A stretch of DNA of 64,000 bases. Source: Marchantia polymorpha subsp. ruderalis (taxonomy: Eukaryota; Streptophyta; Marchantiopsida; Marchantiales; Marchantiaceae). Shown here in pieces: positions 6,503-22,050 of this stretch. Made by a program: the position numbers and the translations under genes. The notes under the pieces were generated by a model. The model did no database searches. It saw only the letters and a list, made by a program, of their open reading frames with translations, and was not told the DNA's origin. The stretch spans positions 15,274,501 through 15,338,500 of the forward strand of contig AP031356.1 in the NCBI GenBank assembly GCA_037833965.1. The letters run 5' to 3'. Positions within the stretch are counted from its first letter, which is position 1; the number at the start of each line of letters is the position of its first letter.

Positions 6503-7400
6503 TGTAATAACCCACCAAAGGCTAAAACTGCAGTATGGTGGTAAAAAGATCGAACCCACAGGGACAGAGGCAACACACAGAGTAAAAGTGTCACATTTAA
6601 CAGACTTTTGGTAGAGTTTGAATTCTAGGCGACTGTCACTCCCAGAAATACTGTAGTGCTCGACTCGGAGGCTCGACTCGGAGGAGGAACTCAACTCGGA
6701 GGATGCTCGGAGGATGCACGGTACAGCTTGGTCACTCAACACACACACACACACACACCTGAAACTGGCAAAAAGCACAACTCGGAGGTCGGTCAGGACC
6801 TCCGCTTCGGATTTCAGGAGGAAAGTGTCTCGCAAGTTCACTCAGAGGTTCTGCAGGAAGTGCCTCCCACTCCGGCTTTTACTGCCCTTCCGCCAGGAAC
6901 TAGCGGGGGTACCCGGACTGGACTTCTCACTTCGGAACGAAGCCTCTACGTACGCCGTGGACGTCACCCTCAACTATCACACAAAACGCAGGGAGTGCAG
7001 ACCCGACTGAGAACTTACTGAAAACACGATCCAGTAACACACACACAACCTGAATTACAAACCAAGGTTTACACGAAGTAATGAAACTTCACATTGGCAT
7101 TCAGGGGAAACTTCCCGTAGGAGTACAATCAGGATATGTCACTCGAAGGAGTAAGGGGGAACTGTTCAAGTCTCTAACTCGCAGCCGGCTCTGAGCATCA
7201 GAAATCACCCGCAGGTGCAGATCCGCACTACTCAAGTCTCTAACCGGGTGCGAGCTCTGAACATTCAGCCGAAGGCCTTCAACTACAACATACGGTAACT
7301 TCGCTATGCTGCAGCTTCTCTACGTGGTGCCAGGACCAAAATGCACAAACACGCCAAGAAAGTGAGTTCCTGATCTGCACTTCCGAAACTGGAAGAGTCC

Positions 7401-7429
7401 CAAGGCAAAACGCCTTGATCTACTTTATA
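7401..7429 (-). promoter_or_regulatory. LTR core promoter: TATA box and conserved hairpin (A1 3' LTR)
   Basis: TATAAAGTA lies at 7429-7421, 34 bp beyond the stop codon of the LTR ORF. The hairpin CAAGGC-GTTTT-GCCTTG (7417-7401) follows directly, so transcription should start at about its 3' edge. The arrangement repeats in every A and B LTR of the window. It marks the U3/R border and puts the whole LTR ORF in U3. Confidence 0.7.
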
Positions 7430-7462
7430 CTCTCAAAAGATCCTATCTAGCACTACGCTATC

Positions 7463-18100: not shown

Positions 18101-18133
18101 CTCTCAAAAGATCCTATCTAGCACTACGCTATC

Positions 18134-20689
18134 CTATCTACCACTCGCAGTATCTGCGCGAAACCAAACTACTCTACTGCACTCGGCAGATCCGGTGCTG
18201 CGCCTCCTGCGCGCCGGACTGCTCCGCGTACTATCTCTACCCTGCCAGTCTTCCGACCGGCTGCGTAACCCCAGGCGTCGGAGCGCTGCAGTGACTTCCG
18301 ACTGCAAGTGCGCCATAGTGTCGCGCGCACCCGACAGAAAAGTTTCTAATTTCCTTGCCACTCGCCGCCGACTCCGACTGTCACCTTCCGTCAATGCCGC
18401 CGCCCGAAGCTCGAACTCCCGGAGTGTAACCCTCTCTTGAGCTGCCACCTCCCAATGGCTGTATCCGTTTAGACAACGAGTCACCCGTGCCGCCAACTCT
18501 CCTCGTGCCCTGCAGCTGCTCTCCACCTCTGCCAGCTGCATTTCTAAATCCGCACGTTGTGTCCTCAAATCCGAGCACTCGGTTTGCAAGTTGCACAACA
18601 ACTCCTCATCCTCCTTCCGGGCTCTTTGACTTTCCTCTAAGGCGCGCGTCTGGCGCGCAAGCTCGGCTGCTAGGACTTCGTTCTGTCTCCGCTCCTCCTG
18701 CAGTTCCGACTCGATCTTTGCCCGTATTAGTTCGGCCTCCGCCTGACTCTTCGTCGCCGCATCCTCCTTCTGCTGCTGCAAGGCTTGGTACAGCTTCTGG
18801 GTGACCGCCAGGTGTTGTCGGAGGGCGGTGTTCCTATCCACATATACTCCGCATCTAGAGGCCCACCTTGCCACCTTGCTCCTCGTCCTTCGCCTGATTG
18901 TCTCCACATAAGACTGCGGTTTTAAGGCACTTCCGTATTTGGATGTCTTGCGATCCAGATATCGCAGGAGTGGAACTATCTGTTCGCACAGCACCCCTGT
19001 TGGCGTTTTCTGCACTGACTCCTCTTCTTGCTCTTCCGAGCTCGTATCATCCTCAGTCGCGAGGATTTCAGTCGCCACCGAATCCCTTGGCGACTCCCTG
19101 GAACTGTGGCGCGCAGCAGCTTCTGCTGCGACTGCTGCTCCACTGCCTGCTAAAATATCCAGGGCAGTGGGAGATCCCACTGCTTGAGCCCCTGTTCCGG
19201 CTCGATCTTCGGTTTGTGAAGGGGTCGACGCCGTAGTGACTTTTGTCACTCTTGCACCGCCCGCTTCTGCTGCCTGTCCTTCCGGCGCAATCTGCGCGGA
19301 AGGTGTCCTTGCTGAAGGTGCGTCCGCCGAAGGCGTCCGCACACTGGTCGTTGGCCCCATCCGTCTTGCAGTCGGCGAATCCGGCTGACTCTCTGTTGTC
19401 CGACTCGCAGTCGGCCGACCATTAGTTGTCCGACTGGGAGTCGGATACACCCTGCGCGTCTTGACTCCACTTGGCCTACTTGTTGGTGGCGTTCTTCCAG
19501 AAGTGCCTTCCGCCGAAGACGACCCTCTGAGGATTGTTGGCTCGTCAGCCAAACTCTCTCCCGCTTCCGGCCTGCTGTCCGGTTCAACGCGCCGTTCAGT
19601 TGGCCTTCCTTCCGTCTGTCGACCTTCAGTCATCCGACTCGCAGTCGGCCGGTCGTCAGTCCGTCCATCTCCTCCCGAAGGCCGTGGTGCCTTCTGTGCA
19701 GAGGTTTCTGCCGTCTTCCCTAGGACCTGAGCAATTATCTCTTCCTGCGTGAGATTCCGCCGGGTCGGAGTTCGCCTGGTCTCCTCAGTAACAGTTGGCA
19801 TTCTGCGTGCCCTCTGTTTTGGTCGACTATGAGGCTCGGGGGTGGGCCGACCACGAGTCGGCGCAGCTGGTACTTCCGGCTGCCTGTCCTCAGGTCTCTC
19901 ATCCCACTTCCGCTTGCGCGGAATGCGCTCACTTCGACGTTCTTCTGCTGCTCTGGCTGGAGCCGGAGCCGGAGGCGTACTGGCAGGTTCCTCGTCCGGA
20001 TCCGTGTCTACTTCGGCCTCCCTCGAATATCTACCTGGATAAGACCGGCTCAGCTGCGGAAACCGAGTTTTCTCAGCATTCGTCAAACATCCCATCGCCC
20101 GGTAAAACACGATTAAGTAAGGCGATAGATGATTGAGCGTTCCTCCCCTCTCTTCTTGCGCATGTTGGCGCGTCACCTTCCACAGAAGTCGTGCCCAATG
20201 CACCGGAGCTCCTGACAACACTAGCTCCACGAACTCTACCTGCCAACCATGCATGTAAGCGGTCTTGGTCGGCTGCAATATCTGCAGCAATGCTGTCGCG
20301 ACATTTCTCCGCAATCGATCCTTGTAATCCCGAGTCCGGAAACCGTTCTTGGGATGTCTAGCCACCTTGAAGAGCTCATTGTAAGAGACTTCTTCCTCTT
20401 GGGACACTTTCACGCTGTCGGCCTCGAAGAGGAGATCCCCTTCCTCGCCGGCACACCTGCCCAACACCTGCGCCCAATTGCCAATTTCCCATCTCTCTGG
20501 GTGTGGGCGAAATCCGCGAGAAGGCTTGTGTCTCTCTTGCAGATACTCGCGCACCATCTCCGGACACGTCCAATTCCACCCCCATAGGAGAAAATCGAGC
20601 TTCAACCTCAACAGCACATCTTGAAACGCGCGTAGACCGATCTGCGGCACCCTGAGTGGAGACACTCGCAGCTGGGGAACCTTCGACAT
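18134..20689 (-). CDS. LTR-encoded accessory protein, 851 aa (A1 5' LTR copy)
   Basis: Same protein as at 7463-10018, with one substitution noticed (NGYSHWE here, NGYTHWE there). Because it lies in the U3 of the 5' LTR, upstream of the TATA box, the element's own genomic transcript would not include it. It could be expressed only from a promoter further upstream in U3 or in the flanking B0 sequence. The frame is open on to 20974, but that extension is not conserved in A2 or A3. Function unknown. Confidence 0.82.
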   Translation of the reverse strand: MSKVPQLRVSPLRVPQIGLRAFQDVLLRLKLDFLLWGWNWTCPEMVREYLQERHKPSRGFRPHPERWEIGNWAQVLGRCAGEEGDLLFEADSVKVSQEEEVSYNELFKVARHPKNGFRTRDYKDRLRRNVATALLQILQPTKTAYMHGWQVEFVELVLSGAPVHWARLLWKVTRQHAQEERGGTLNHLSPYLIVFYRAMGCLTNAEKTRFPQLSRSYPGRYSREAEVDTDPDEEPASTPPAPAPARAAEERRSERIPRKRKWDERPEDRQPEVPAAPTRGRPTPEPHSRPKQRARRMPTVTEETRRTPTRRNLTQEEIIAQVLGKTAETSAQKAPRPSGGDGRTDDRPTASRMTEGRQTEGRPTERRVEPDSRPEAGESLADEPTILRGSSSAEGTSGRTPPTSRPSGVKTRRVYPTPSRTTNGRPTASRTTESQPDSPTARRMGPTTSVRTPSADAPSARTPSAQIAPEGQAAEAGGARVTKVTTASTPSQTEDRAGTGAQAVGSPTALDILAGSGAAVAAEAAARHSSRESPRDSVATEILATEDDTSSEEQEEESVQKTPTGVLCEQIVPLLRYLDRKTSKYGSALKPQSYVETIRRRTRSKVARWASRCGVYVDRNTALRQHLAVTQKLYQALQQQKEDAATKSQAEAELIRAKIESELQEERRQNEVLAAELARQTRALEESQRARKEDEELLCNLQTECSDLRTQRADLEMQLAEVESSCRARGELAARVTRCLNGYSHWEVAAQERVTLREFELRAAALTEGDSRSRRRVARKLETFLSGARDTMAHLQSEVTAALRRLGLRSRSEDWQGRDSTRSSPARRRRSTGSAECSRVVWFRADTASGR

Positions 20690-22050
20690 TGCGTTGCCTG
20701 CACACACACAAACGTTCTCCCTTTCGCTCGCTCTCTCACAATCGCCACTGCGCGTCGGCCACTCAAGCGCTGACTGCTCACTCTCTCTGCGCTCGTTCAA
20801 GATCGCTACTCCAATTCTTTCAAGGTCCGCCAAGATCCTTGCGCAACTCGTCTCCGCACTCTCTACTCTCACTGCAGGTCGCTCCGCCCTTGCGCGTAAT
20901 CTTGGAACTGGAAATCGCAAAGTCAAGAATGAGAGAATGAGACTGGAGCGCAGTCTTTTCTTCTCCGATTTCAAGAACGTCCAACGTTCTTACTGGTTGC
21001 AACGTACGCAGCCGGCTATACGGCTTAACGGTTCGCCCTTTGCATGCGCGAATTCACGTCTCCGCCTTGCGCGCATTCGCATGCTTAAACGTTGAATTCT
21101 CCCGCCGCCGCCACCTTCCGGACTCGAGTCCGCTGCAGGGTATACGTCGGCCCTGTTGTCTTTTCCTAACCCGCCCTTCTCCGGAGGCGTGTCGCCGCTG
21201 GTGTGTTCATTATCCGTCGGCGCCTTGCTGGAGGCGCACATCCAGCCGGAGCGAATTACGCCGGCGCGCAGTCGTACCGCCTATTTTGTCCTTTATGCCT
21301 CGTCCGTTGCTGCCAGCGCATATCCGTCAGCGCAACTCATGCCAGCGCATCCGGCCGTCAGCGCCACGTCGGAGGCGTACATCCGACCGGCGCTTTCCTT
21401 CCATGAACAGCCGCCAAGGGCGCTTCCGACTCTGAGTTGGTTTCCTCCTGTGAGCGCGTGATTCCGCCGAAGGCGCATCGCCGAGGGCGTACGGGAATCC
21501 TTTCCGGCTGTGAACCCTAGCGCGAACGGCGCATGTCCGGCTACGAGTTTTCCGACGCTCATAACTTCTCCATTCCTGATCCATCTCTGGCGCTCTTGGA
21601 CTCGTTAGAACGAGCGTCCCGAGCTCTTTCTAATGCAACTTCAACCAACTGGATCTACCGTGTATCCCGATTGTTATGAAGGTTTTCCCTTTCCGCGCTA
21701 GCGGCGCTTCGCCGAAGGCGCACTCATGGTCGGATGCCTTTAGAGGTCCGGGCCCTTCCCCTGACGTCTTTAGCACAATCTCCTCCTGAGGTGTCTGCGC
21801 CGGAAGCGTAGCTTCCTTATACGCTAGAGGCGCGTGAGTAGAGATACCTCAAAAAGGAGCTTTTGCCGAAGGCGCCGAAGACGTTGGCGTTGGTACATCC
21901 GACTACGTGATTCTTTGTGCCCTCGTGACGATCTCATCAATCCACTCTATTTAGCGTACCCTTCTCTAGCTACAAACACTGCTTTGGTACTAGTTTTCTG
22001 AAATTGTTTAAATTCTGCAAAAAAAACAAAAAGTGTGTTACCACAGCACG

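What the first reader, a model, noticed from the sequence alone, without database searches (positions are those of the whole stretch)
6503..22045. A large protein-coding ORF lies entirely inside the LTR of a plant Ty3/gypsy family
A1's LTRs (4872 bp, fixed by the GCACG duplication) each contain an 851-codon ORF, so the element carries two identical copies. The same ORF, same length and no indels, is open in A2 and A3, and a homologue is open in the family-B LTR B2. The ORF ends 34-37 bp before the LTR TATA box in every copy, so it fills U3 and is the last cistron of the genomic RNA. LTR-encoded proteins are rare (MMTV sag in the U3 of an animal retrovirus is the known analogue); I do not know of a described plant Ty3/gypsy element organised like this.
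Basis: partly seen in the sequence, partly recalled or inferred. Interest (0 to 1): 0.88.

Follow-up and report, generated by a model that had tools for sequence, protein, structure and literature searches.

The report
Conserved gene inside a retrotransposon's LTR
In what looks like the liverwort Marchantia, a group of virus-like mobile elements carries a large, selectively conserved protein gene inside its terminal repeats, a place that normally holds only control signals, so a complete element holds the gene twice and even one lone repeat here still has it intact.

Summary
A1 (6503-22045, minus strand) has two 4872-bp LTRs differing at 1 base, a 5-bp target-site duplication, gag-protease and RT-RH-integrase; each LTR contains an intact 851-codon ORF ending 33 nt before a TATA box. 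The ORF is open, same length, in A2 and A3. A 42%-identical 966-codon homologue is intact in a more distant family, C, not mentioned in the finding; the B copy is broken. Window copies give dN/dS 0.10-0.43 (NG86; 0.10-0.58 by YN00), so the protein has been conserved. Three searches found 72 related proteins: 64 named Marchantia polymorpha, 8 unnamed. No credible known domain or usable fold was found, and no transmembrane segment in A1 or C1; an NLS-like KRK(W) motif occurs in 38 of 44 testable sequences. A C-related LTR lacks the ORF: similarity starts 2 nt after the ORF's stop codon. I read this as a U3-encoded, probably nuclear accessory protein, perhaps acting in trans; expression and function are untested. 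Ten phrase searches of open-licence papers showed no plant precedent.

The parts
6503..11374 (-). 3' LTR of element A1 (4872 bp)
17174..22045 (-). 5' LTR of element A1, 1 mismatch to the 3' LTR
6498..6502 (.). target-site duplication GCACG (left copy; right copy 22046-22050)
7463..10018 (-). LTR ORF, 851 aa, copy in the 3' LTR (U3)
18134..20689 (-). LTR ORF, 851 aa, copy in the 5' LTR (U3)
7424..7429 (-). TATA box (TATAAA) 33 nt after the ORF stop in the 3' LTR of A1
10019..10373 (-). 355 nt before the ORF start in which no ATG begins (possible leader)
17134..17151 (-). PBS-like TGGCGCCGCTGCCGGGGA, 22 nt after the 5' LTR (tRNA-Asp-like by recall only)
   Evidence: sequence printed
14253..17090 (-). 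gag - zinc knuckles - aspartic protease ORF, 945 aa, ends in TAG CAA CTA
11412..14252 (-). RT - RNase H - integrase frame, continuous with gag-protease after one TAG
11375..11387 (-). PPT-like GAGGAGGGGGGCA next to the 3' LTR
   Evidence: sequence printed
30464..35333 (-). A2 3' LTR; intact 851-aa ORF 33975-31420
52775..57641 (-). A3 3' LTR; intact 851-aa ORF 56286-53731
29078..30463 (-). B LTR, first piece (others 25384-26579 and 2967-4475; one LTR by inference); ORF homologue broken by a one-base frameshift near its start and two nested insertions
43545..48952 (-). C1 solo LTR (5408 bp, TSD CGAAT) with intact 966-codon ORF homologue 47458-44558
39581..43546 (+). C2 LTR, first piece (second 48953-50404, then gag from 50491); ORF broken by frameshift and by insertion of C1
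4476..6502 (+). C3 solo LTR, first piece (second 22046-25381; TSD AATTC); ORF interrupted by A1 and by one nonsense codon
26580..29077 (+). D: ORF-less solo LTR (2498 bp, TSD TCTCT) whose last 1019 bp are 97% identical to C1, similarity starting 2 nt after the C1 ORF stop

Best explanation
Ty3/gypsy elements of Marchantia (A and its close relative B, and the more distant C) carry an accessory protein gene in the U3 part of their LTRs, in sense orientation, ending just upstream of the core promoter. Shown by sequence: position, presence in both LTRs of A1, homology between A, B and C, purifying selection. Inferred: the gene is expressed from its own U3 promoter or as a spliced RNA with a short leader; the product is a nuclear protein (NLS-like motif after a conserved N-terminal domain, a disordered-looking Pro/Ser/Thr/Arg-rich middle, a coiled-coil-like C terminus) that acts, possibly in trans, as a regulator of transcription, silencing, RNA export or nuclear import of the element. 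Which of these it does is open.
For: Anatomy. Selection (NG86 dN/dS): A1-A2 0.23, A1-A3 0.30, A2-A3 0.43 (851 codons each); A-B N-terminal piece (260 codons) 0.10-0.12, B middle (405) 0.43, B C-terminal (190) 0.23; C1-C2 piece (458) 0.24; C1-C3 piece (176) dN 0; B-C1 0.25; A1-C1 0.13 with dS saturated. Third-position excess: A1-B 19/11/60 (p 1e-10), A1-A2 18/11/44 (p 4e-6), A1-C1 348/258/515 (p 2e-20). No gap in the ORF among A1, A2, A3, against 2-4 gap runs in each of the two flanking LTR parts in every pair. Divergent family: 72 proteins, 64 named M. polymorpha. NLS-like KR[KR][WFLC] in 38 of the 44 sequences (of 77 given) that hold the region; 6 lack it. Leader: no ATG begins in the last 355, 356 and 354 nt before the start in A1, A2, A3 (A1: mean 4.0 in 1000 shuffles, none in 1.3%). 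Modular cassette: ORF-less LTR D shares promoter/R/U5 with C1 at 97% and has its own TSD.
Against: No expression data. No credible domain, AlphaFold models too poor to use (mean pLDDT 44.6 and 56.1), no fold match. YN00 gives higher ratios (0.35, 0.43, 0.58 for the A pairs; up to 0.72 for one third of the ORF in A2-A3), the A2-A3 codon-position bias is not significant (p 0.054), and the ORF is less constrained than pol (NG86 0.04-0.10) and gag (0.15). The A copies are closely related, so their ratios are not independent. ATG depletion is not significant in C1 (none in 8.5% of shuffles; one ATG seen in the last 250 nt). D is a solo LTR, so its internal region and mobilisation in trans are not seen. 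Whether the other database paralogues also lie in LTRs was not tested.
Confidence: 0.6

Rival explanations
1. It is an Env-like protein (as in Athila or SIRE) whose gene now lies in the LTR.
For: Sense orientation and position after pol match the sense additional ORFs called env-like (PMC7264820).
Against: No segment of A1 or C1 reaches transmembrane hydropathy (best 19-residue Kyte-Doolittle mean 1.22 and 1.14); NLS-like motif instead.
Confidence: 0.08
2. The ORF is a passenger with no present function; it is open only because the copies are young.
For: A copies are 97-98% identical and the A1 LTRs differ at 1 base; the ORF is broken in B, C2 and C3; A2-A3 bias not significant.
Against: dN/dS far below 1 over the longer A-B distance, third-position excess A-C, and protein conservation across paralogues mostly 35-62% identical to A1.
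Confidence: 0.1
3. It is a host gene captured by the element.
For: LTR elements do capture genes (PMC7264820); the D/C1 breakpoint beside the stop codon shows cassette-like behaviour.
Against: No named relative outside Marchantia in three searches (72 proteins; the first two scored only the about 8,000 candidates sharing most words); many divergent paralogues, as for an old element gene.
Confidence: 0.1
4. The 5' LTR copy is made as an N-terminal extension or co-transcript of gag.
For: Gene model P0015 (MARPO_0006s0274, partial) runs from LTR-ORF sequence into gag.
Against: The ORF has its own stop before the TATA box in the intact copies A1, A2, A3 and C1, with about 1 kb of LTR between it and the internal region; P0015 is one predicted model.
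Confidence: 0.05
5. The long direct repeats are a tandem duplication containing an internal region, not LTRs.
For: LTRs of 4.9-5.4 kb are at the upper end for plants (up to about 5 kb in passages of PMC6317226).
Against: TSD, PBS-like and PPT-like sequences at the repeat edges, solo LTRs C1, C3 and D with own TSDs, same ends at different sites.
Confidence: 0.01

Closest known systems
MMTV sag (superantigen gene in U3 of an animal retrovirus; recalled)
   Same: Protein gene wholly inside U3, sense strand, present in both LTRs.
   Different: Unrelated host and role; the Marchantia ORF begins 1.36 kb into the LTR, is 851-966 codons long and has no transmembrane segment.
Sense additional ORFs between pol and 3' LTR of plant OTA and SIRE elements (env-like; PMC7264820 text parts 1-2, PMC6317226 passages)
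   Same: Sense orientation, downstream of pol, long LTRs.
   Different: Here the ORF is inside the LTR and so present twice; no transmembrane segment found.
Antisense additional ORFs of Grande (gene23) and Retand (Transposase_28) (PMC7264820 text parts 1-2; PMC11963269 abstract and passages)
   Same: Accessory protein reported as nuclear (Grande) or suspected to bind DNA (Retand); Grande gene23 has its own promoter.
   Different: Those are antisense and internal; no Transposase_28 or plant mobile domain hit was listed here.
ORF0 of rice Retrosat2/RIRE3/RIRE8 (PMC3485330 abstract and passages)
   Same: Extra ORF in an element with LTRs of about 3 kb or more, less conserved than the gag-pol ORF.
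   Different: ORF0 is described as upstream of gag-pol, not in the LTR.
[not shown]
   Same: Marchantia Ty3/gypsy without an additional RNase H.
   Different: Whether A/B/C belong there was not tested; no LTR ORF is mentioned in the passages I saw.

Membership tests
Ty3/gypsy LTR retrotransposon | gag, protease, RT, RNase H, then integrase, between LTRs with TSD | tested here: met
   Retrotrans_gag, zf-CCHC, aspartyl protease (E 1e-4, just below its cut-off), RVT_1, RT_RNaseH, H2C2, rve in that order; TSD GCACG
OTA (Ogre/Tat/Athila) superclade | RT/INT phylogeny | not tested
   no reference set was fetched
OTA (Ogre/Tat/Athila) superclade | non-chromovirus: no chromodomain; PBS not of the Met type | tested here: inconclusive
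   no chromodomain hit listed in gag or pol ORFs; PBS-like TGGCGCCGCTGCCGGGGA resembles tRNA-Asp by recall only
Tat with additional RNase H | second RNase H domain | tested here: not met
   only one RNase H region (two overlapping models, residues 352-481 of the frame) matched
Env-like additional ORF | transmembrane segment(s) | tested here: not met
   maximum 19-residue hydropathy 1.22 (A1) and 1.14 (C1); other members not tested
Transposase_28 / plant mobile domain / Athila ORF-1 additional ORFs | match to the Pfam models | tested here: not met
   none among the 24 families listed at E up to 10 for 43 members; a remote relation is not excluded
U3-encoded accessory gene (organisation as in MMTV sag) | complete ORF inside U3, in both LTRs, upstream of the TATA box | tested here: met
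   A1; for A2, A3, C only one LTR with the ORF is in the window or it is a solo LTR
U3-encoded accessory gene (organisation as in MMTV sag) | expressed protein | not testable with these tools
   no RNA or protein data

The most novel reading that the evidence does not exclude
The ORF is an independent, trans-acting gene cassette living in U3: it has its own promoter inside the LTR, is expressed from 5', 3' and solo LTRs alike, and controls the element (for example by counteracting silencing or exporting RNA), so that solo-LTR formation leaves behind working regulator genes, and ORF-less LTR elements such as D live as parasites of it. This would be a plant retrotransposon regulatory gene copied with its own promoter region.
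Probability: 0.2. Interest if true: 0.85.

Novelty: new variant of a known kind. Interest (0 to 1): 0.7.

Why it matters
A 2020 review describes additional ORFs of plant LTR retrotransposons in the internal region, mostly between pol and the 3' LTR. A conserved protein gene inside U3 changes how such genes can be inherited and expressed: a complete element carries two copies, made alike at each reverse transcription, and a solo LTR can keep a complete gene. It also means that treating LTRs as non-coding can hide a protein family; 64 of the 72 relatives found are annotated Marchantia proteins, shown as hypothetical. Marchantia is a tractable model, so expression, localisation and effect on transposition can be tested directly.

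Tried and rejected
Env-like reading: disfavoured, no transmembrane segment in A1 or C1. Known domains: Pfam on the full protein and on 43 family members, and NCBIfam on A1 and C1, gave coiled-coil noise and isolated weak hits (best: CENP-K, E 0.0018, in 1 of 43; SMC_prok_B, E 0.043, in the A1 C terminus). PDB by sequence: two hits, E 1 and 8.2. Structure: two AlphaFold jobs of the N-terminal domain, mean pLDDT 44.6 and 56.1; Foldseek with the second gave nothing better than E 3.2 in the PDB and 0.6 in BFVD; I draw nothing from them. Viral contigs: 258 pattern matches, none a relative. Relatives outside Marchantia: none named in three protein searches; 8 of 72 proteins come from an unnamed source tagged 'lgn'. 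The first two searches scored only the roughly 8,000 candidates sharing most words, and all three limit the candidates' length, so distant relatives may have been missed. A splice acceptor at the ORF start was considered by eye (A...TGTGTGCAG/GCAACGCAATG; C...CCCCAG/GAACGCAATG), but C lacks a pyrimidine tract there; left open. Paper searches (10 of 10) listed no plant element with an LTR-internal protein gene by title or abstract; they cover open-licence PMC papers and exact phrases, and most listed papers were not opened.
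Full report
Where it is. The window's LTR protein matches Marchantia polymorpha subsp. ruderalis proteins; the best hit is 95% identical over 59% of the query (Mp_8g15400). The source is therefore Marchantia or very close to it (inference; the genome itself could not be searched). The window is a nest of Ty3/gypsy insertions.

Element A1. On the minus strand: LTR 22045-17174, internal 17173-11375, LTR 11374-6503. The LTRs are 4872 bp with 1 mismatch and TG...CA ends, and GCACG is present on both sides. 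The internal region starts with a PBS-like TGGCGCCGCTGCCGGGGA 22 nt after the LTR (tRNA-Asp-like; that label is recalled) and ends in GAGGAGGGGGGCA. Pfam finds gag, zinc knuckles and an aspartic protease in the first ORF and RT, RNase H, H2C2 and integrase in the second; no chromodomain and no second RNase H region is listed. The A2 and A3 LTRs end at the same bases at different sites, so the LTR borders are sound.

The ORF. LTR positions 1357-3912 encode 851 aa. TATAAA starts 33 nt after the stop in A1, A2 and A3 and 36 nt after it in C1. Two hundred dinucleotide shuffles of the A1 LTR gave a longest ATG-started ORF of 275 codons, mean 140. Taking transcription to start shortly after the TATA box, the ORF covers about two thirds of U3 and lies near the 3' end of the genomic RNA.

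Other copies in the window. I count eight LTRs that contain or contained the ORF region: A1 (two), A2, A3, B, C1, C2, C3. It is intact in five (A1 twice, A2, A3, C1) and broken in three: B (one-base frameshift near the start, two nested insertions), C2 (frameshift and insertion of C1), C3 (insertion of A1 and one nonsense codon). That the three B pieces are one LTR is inferred from their adjoining coordinates. Not counted: the LTR cut by the window end at 63432-64000, which does not reach the ORF, and D, which lacks it. B is about 91% identical to A over its pieces, so A and B are close kin; C is the independent case: its LTR aligns to A only in parts, at 66-78%. The C1 solo LTR (43545-48952, TSD CGAAT) has a 966-codon ORF, 42% identical to A1 by tblastn and 50% over 827 aligned codons. 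C3 is also a solo LTR (TSD AATTC).

Selection. NG86 dN/dS: A1-A2 0.23, A1-A3 0.30, A2-A3 0.43 over 851 codons; A-B N-terminal piece (260 codons) 0.10-0.12; B middle (405) 0.43; B C-terminal (190) 0.23; C1-C2 piece (458) 0.24; C1-C3 piece (176) no nonsynonymous change; B-C1 0.25; A1-C1 0.13 with dS saturated, so only its direction counts. YN00 gives 0.35, 0.43 and 0.58 for the three A pairs, up to 0.72 for the last third of the ORF in A2-A3, and 0.10-0.12 for A-B; it failed on the A-C and B-C comparisons. Differences by codon position: A1-B 19/11/60 (p 1e-10), A1-A2 18/11/44 (p 4e-6), A1-A3 15/12/31 (p 0.0045), A2-A3 15/15/28 (p 0.054), A1-C1 348/258/515 (p 2e-20). For comparison NG86 is 0.04-0.10 for pol (three A pairs) and 0.15 for gag (A1-A3). 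Among A1, A2 and A3 the ORF has no gaps, whereas each of the two flanking LTR parts has 2-4 gap runs in every pair. The ORF is therefore a real, constrained gene, under weaker constraint than pol.

The protein family. Three searches gave 72 proteins: 64 are named M. polymorpha (AXG93, Mp or MARPO models) and 8 come from an unnamed source (E cut-offs 0.01, 1 and 10; candidate caps as told in Tried and rejected). In the first alignment identities to A1 run from 35% to 62%, with one at 95%. Conserved parts are an N-terminal domain of about 240 residues (LLWGWNW, GRCAGEEG, TRDYKDR..RN, HWARILWK motifs), a Pro/Ser/Thr/Arg-rich middle and a C-terminal part with a 115-residue Pro/Gly-free stretch in A1 (55 in C1) and a heptad-like pattern by a simple score without a control. 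Of 77 sequences given (72 database, 5 window), 44 hold the region after the N-domain, and 38 of these, 4 window copies among them, have KR[KR] followed by W, F, L or C, an NLS-like motif; 6 lack it. No transmembrane segment in A1 or C1. No credible Pfam family among 43 members; no usable fold.

Expression. In A1 18 ATGs precede the ORF within the LTR, but none begins in the last 355 nt (mean 4.0 in 1000 shuffles; none in 1.3%). A2 and A3 have the same gap (356 and 354 nt). In C1, C2 and C3 the ATGs at -417, -252 and -30 are in frame; the open frame reaches back only to -279 in C1, so the ORF start in C may be earlier than I took it, and the shuffle test in C1 is not significant. Short blocks of this stretch are alike in A and C, which are 53% identical there overall. 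I infer a dedicated mRNA from an internal promoter or by splicing; translation from unspliced genomic RNA would have to pass the 18 upstream AUGs. No RNA evidence was available.

An ORF-less sister. D (26580-29077, TSD TCTCT) is an LTR whose last 1019 bp are 97% identical to C1, starting 2 nt after the C1 ORF stop; upstream it shares only scattered stretches with C1, mostly from the first 0.9 kb of the C LTR, and tblastn of the LTR protein finds nothing in it below E 2. The ORF thus behaves as a U3 cassette, and an LTR without it has been inserted. That D was mobilised in trans is inference: D is a solo LTR. Whether D lost the ORF or never had it is open.

Verdict. The kind (accessory gene of an LTR element) is known; its place inside U3 of a plant Ty3/gypsy element, conserved between A/B and the distant family C and intact in a solo LTR, is a new variant as far as I could check. 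Function and expression remain to be shown.

Noticed in passing
14253-14255 (-); A2 38212-38214; A3 60520-60522: Gag-protease and RT-integrase are in one frame separated by a single TAG in the context TAG CAA CTA, the same in A1, A2 and A3. This fits the TMV-type readthrough signal UAG-CAR-YYA (recalled; a similar signal is recalled for the env-like ORF of SIRE1).
   Followed up: partly
26580-29077 (+): ORF-less solo LTR D: C-family promoter/R/U5 joined to a different U3 right after the ORF stop; it also contains a telomere-like TTTAGGGTTAGGGTTAG near 27970.
   Followed up: partly
2967-30463 and 30464-64000: Order of nested insertions can be read from abutting coordinates: C3 and D into B, A1 into C3, A2 into B, C2 into A2, C1 and A3 into C2. 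5-bp TSDs were seen for 4 of these 7 (A1, C1, C3, D); not checked for A2, A3, C2.
   Followed up: partly
P0015 (MARPO_0006s0274): A public gene model joins LTR-ORF sequence to gag through a KE/RD-rich stretch, probably an annotation artefact across a 5' LTR.
   Followed up: no
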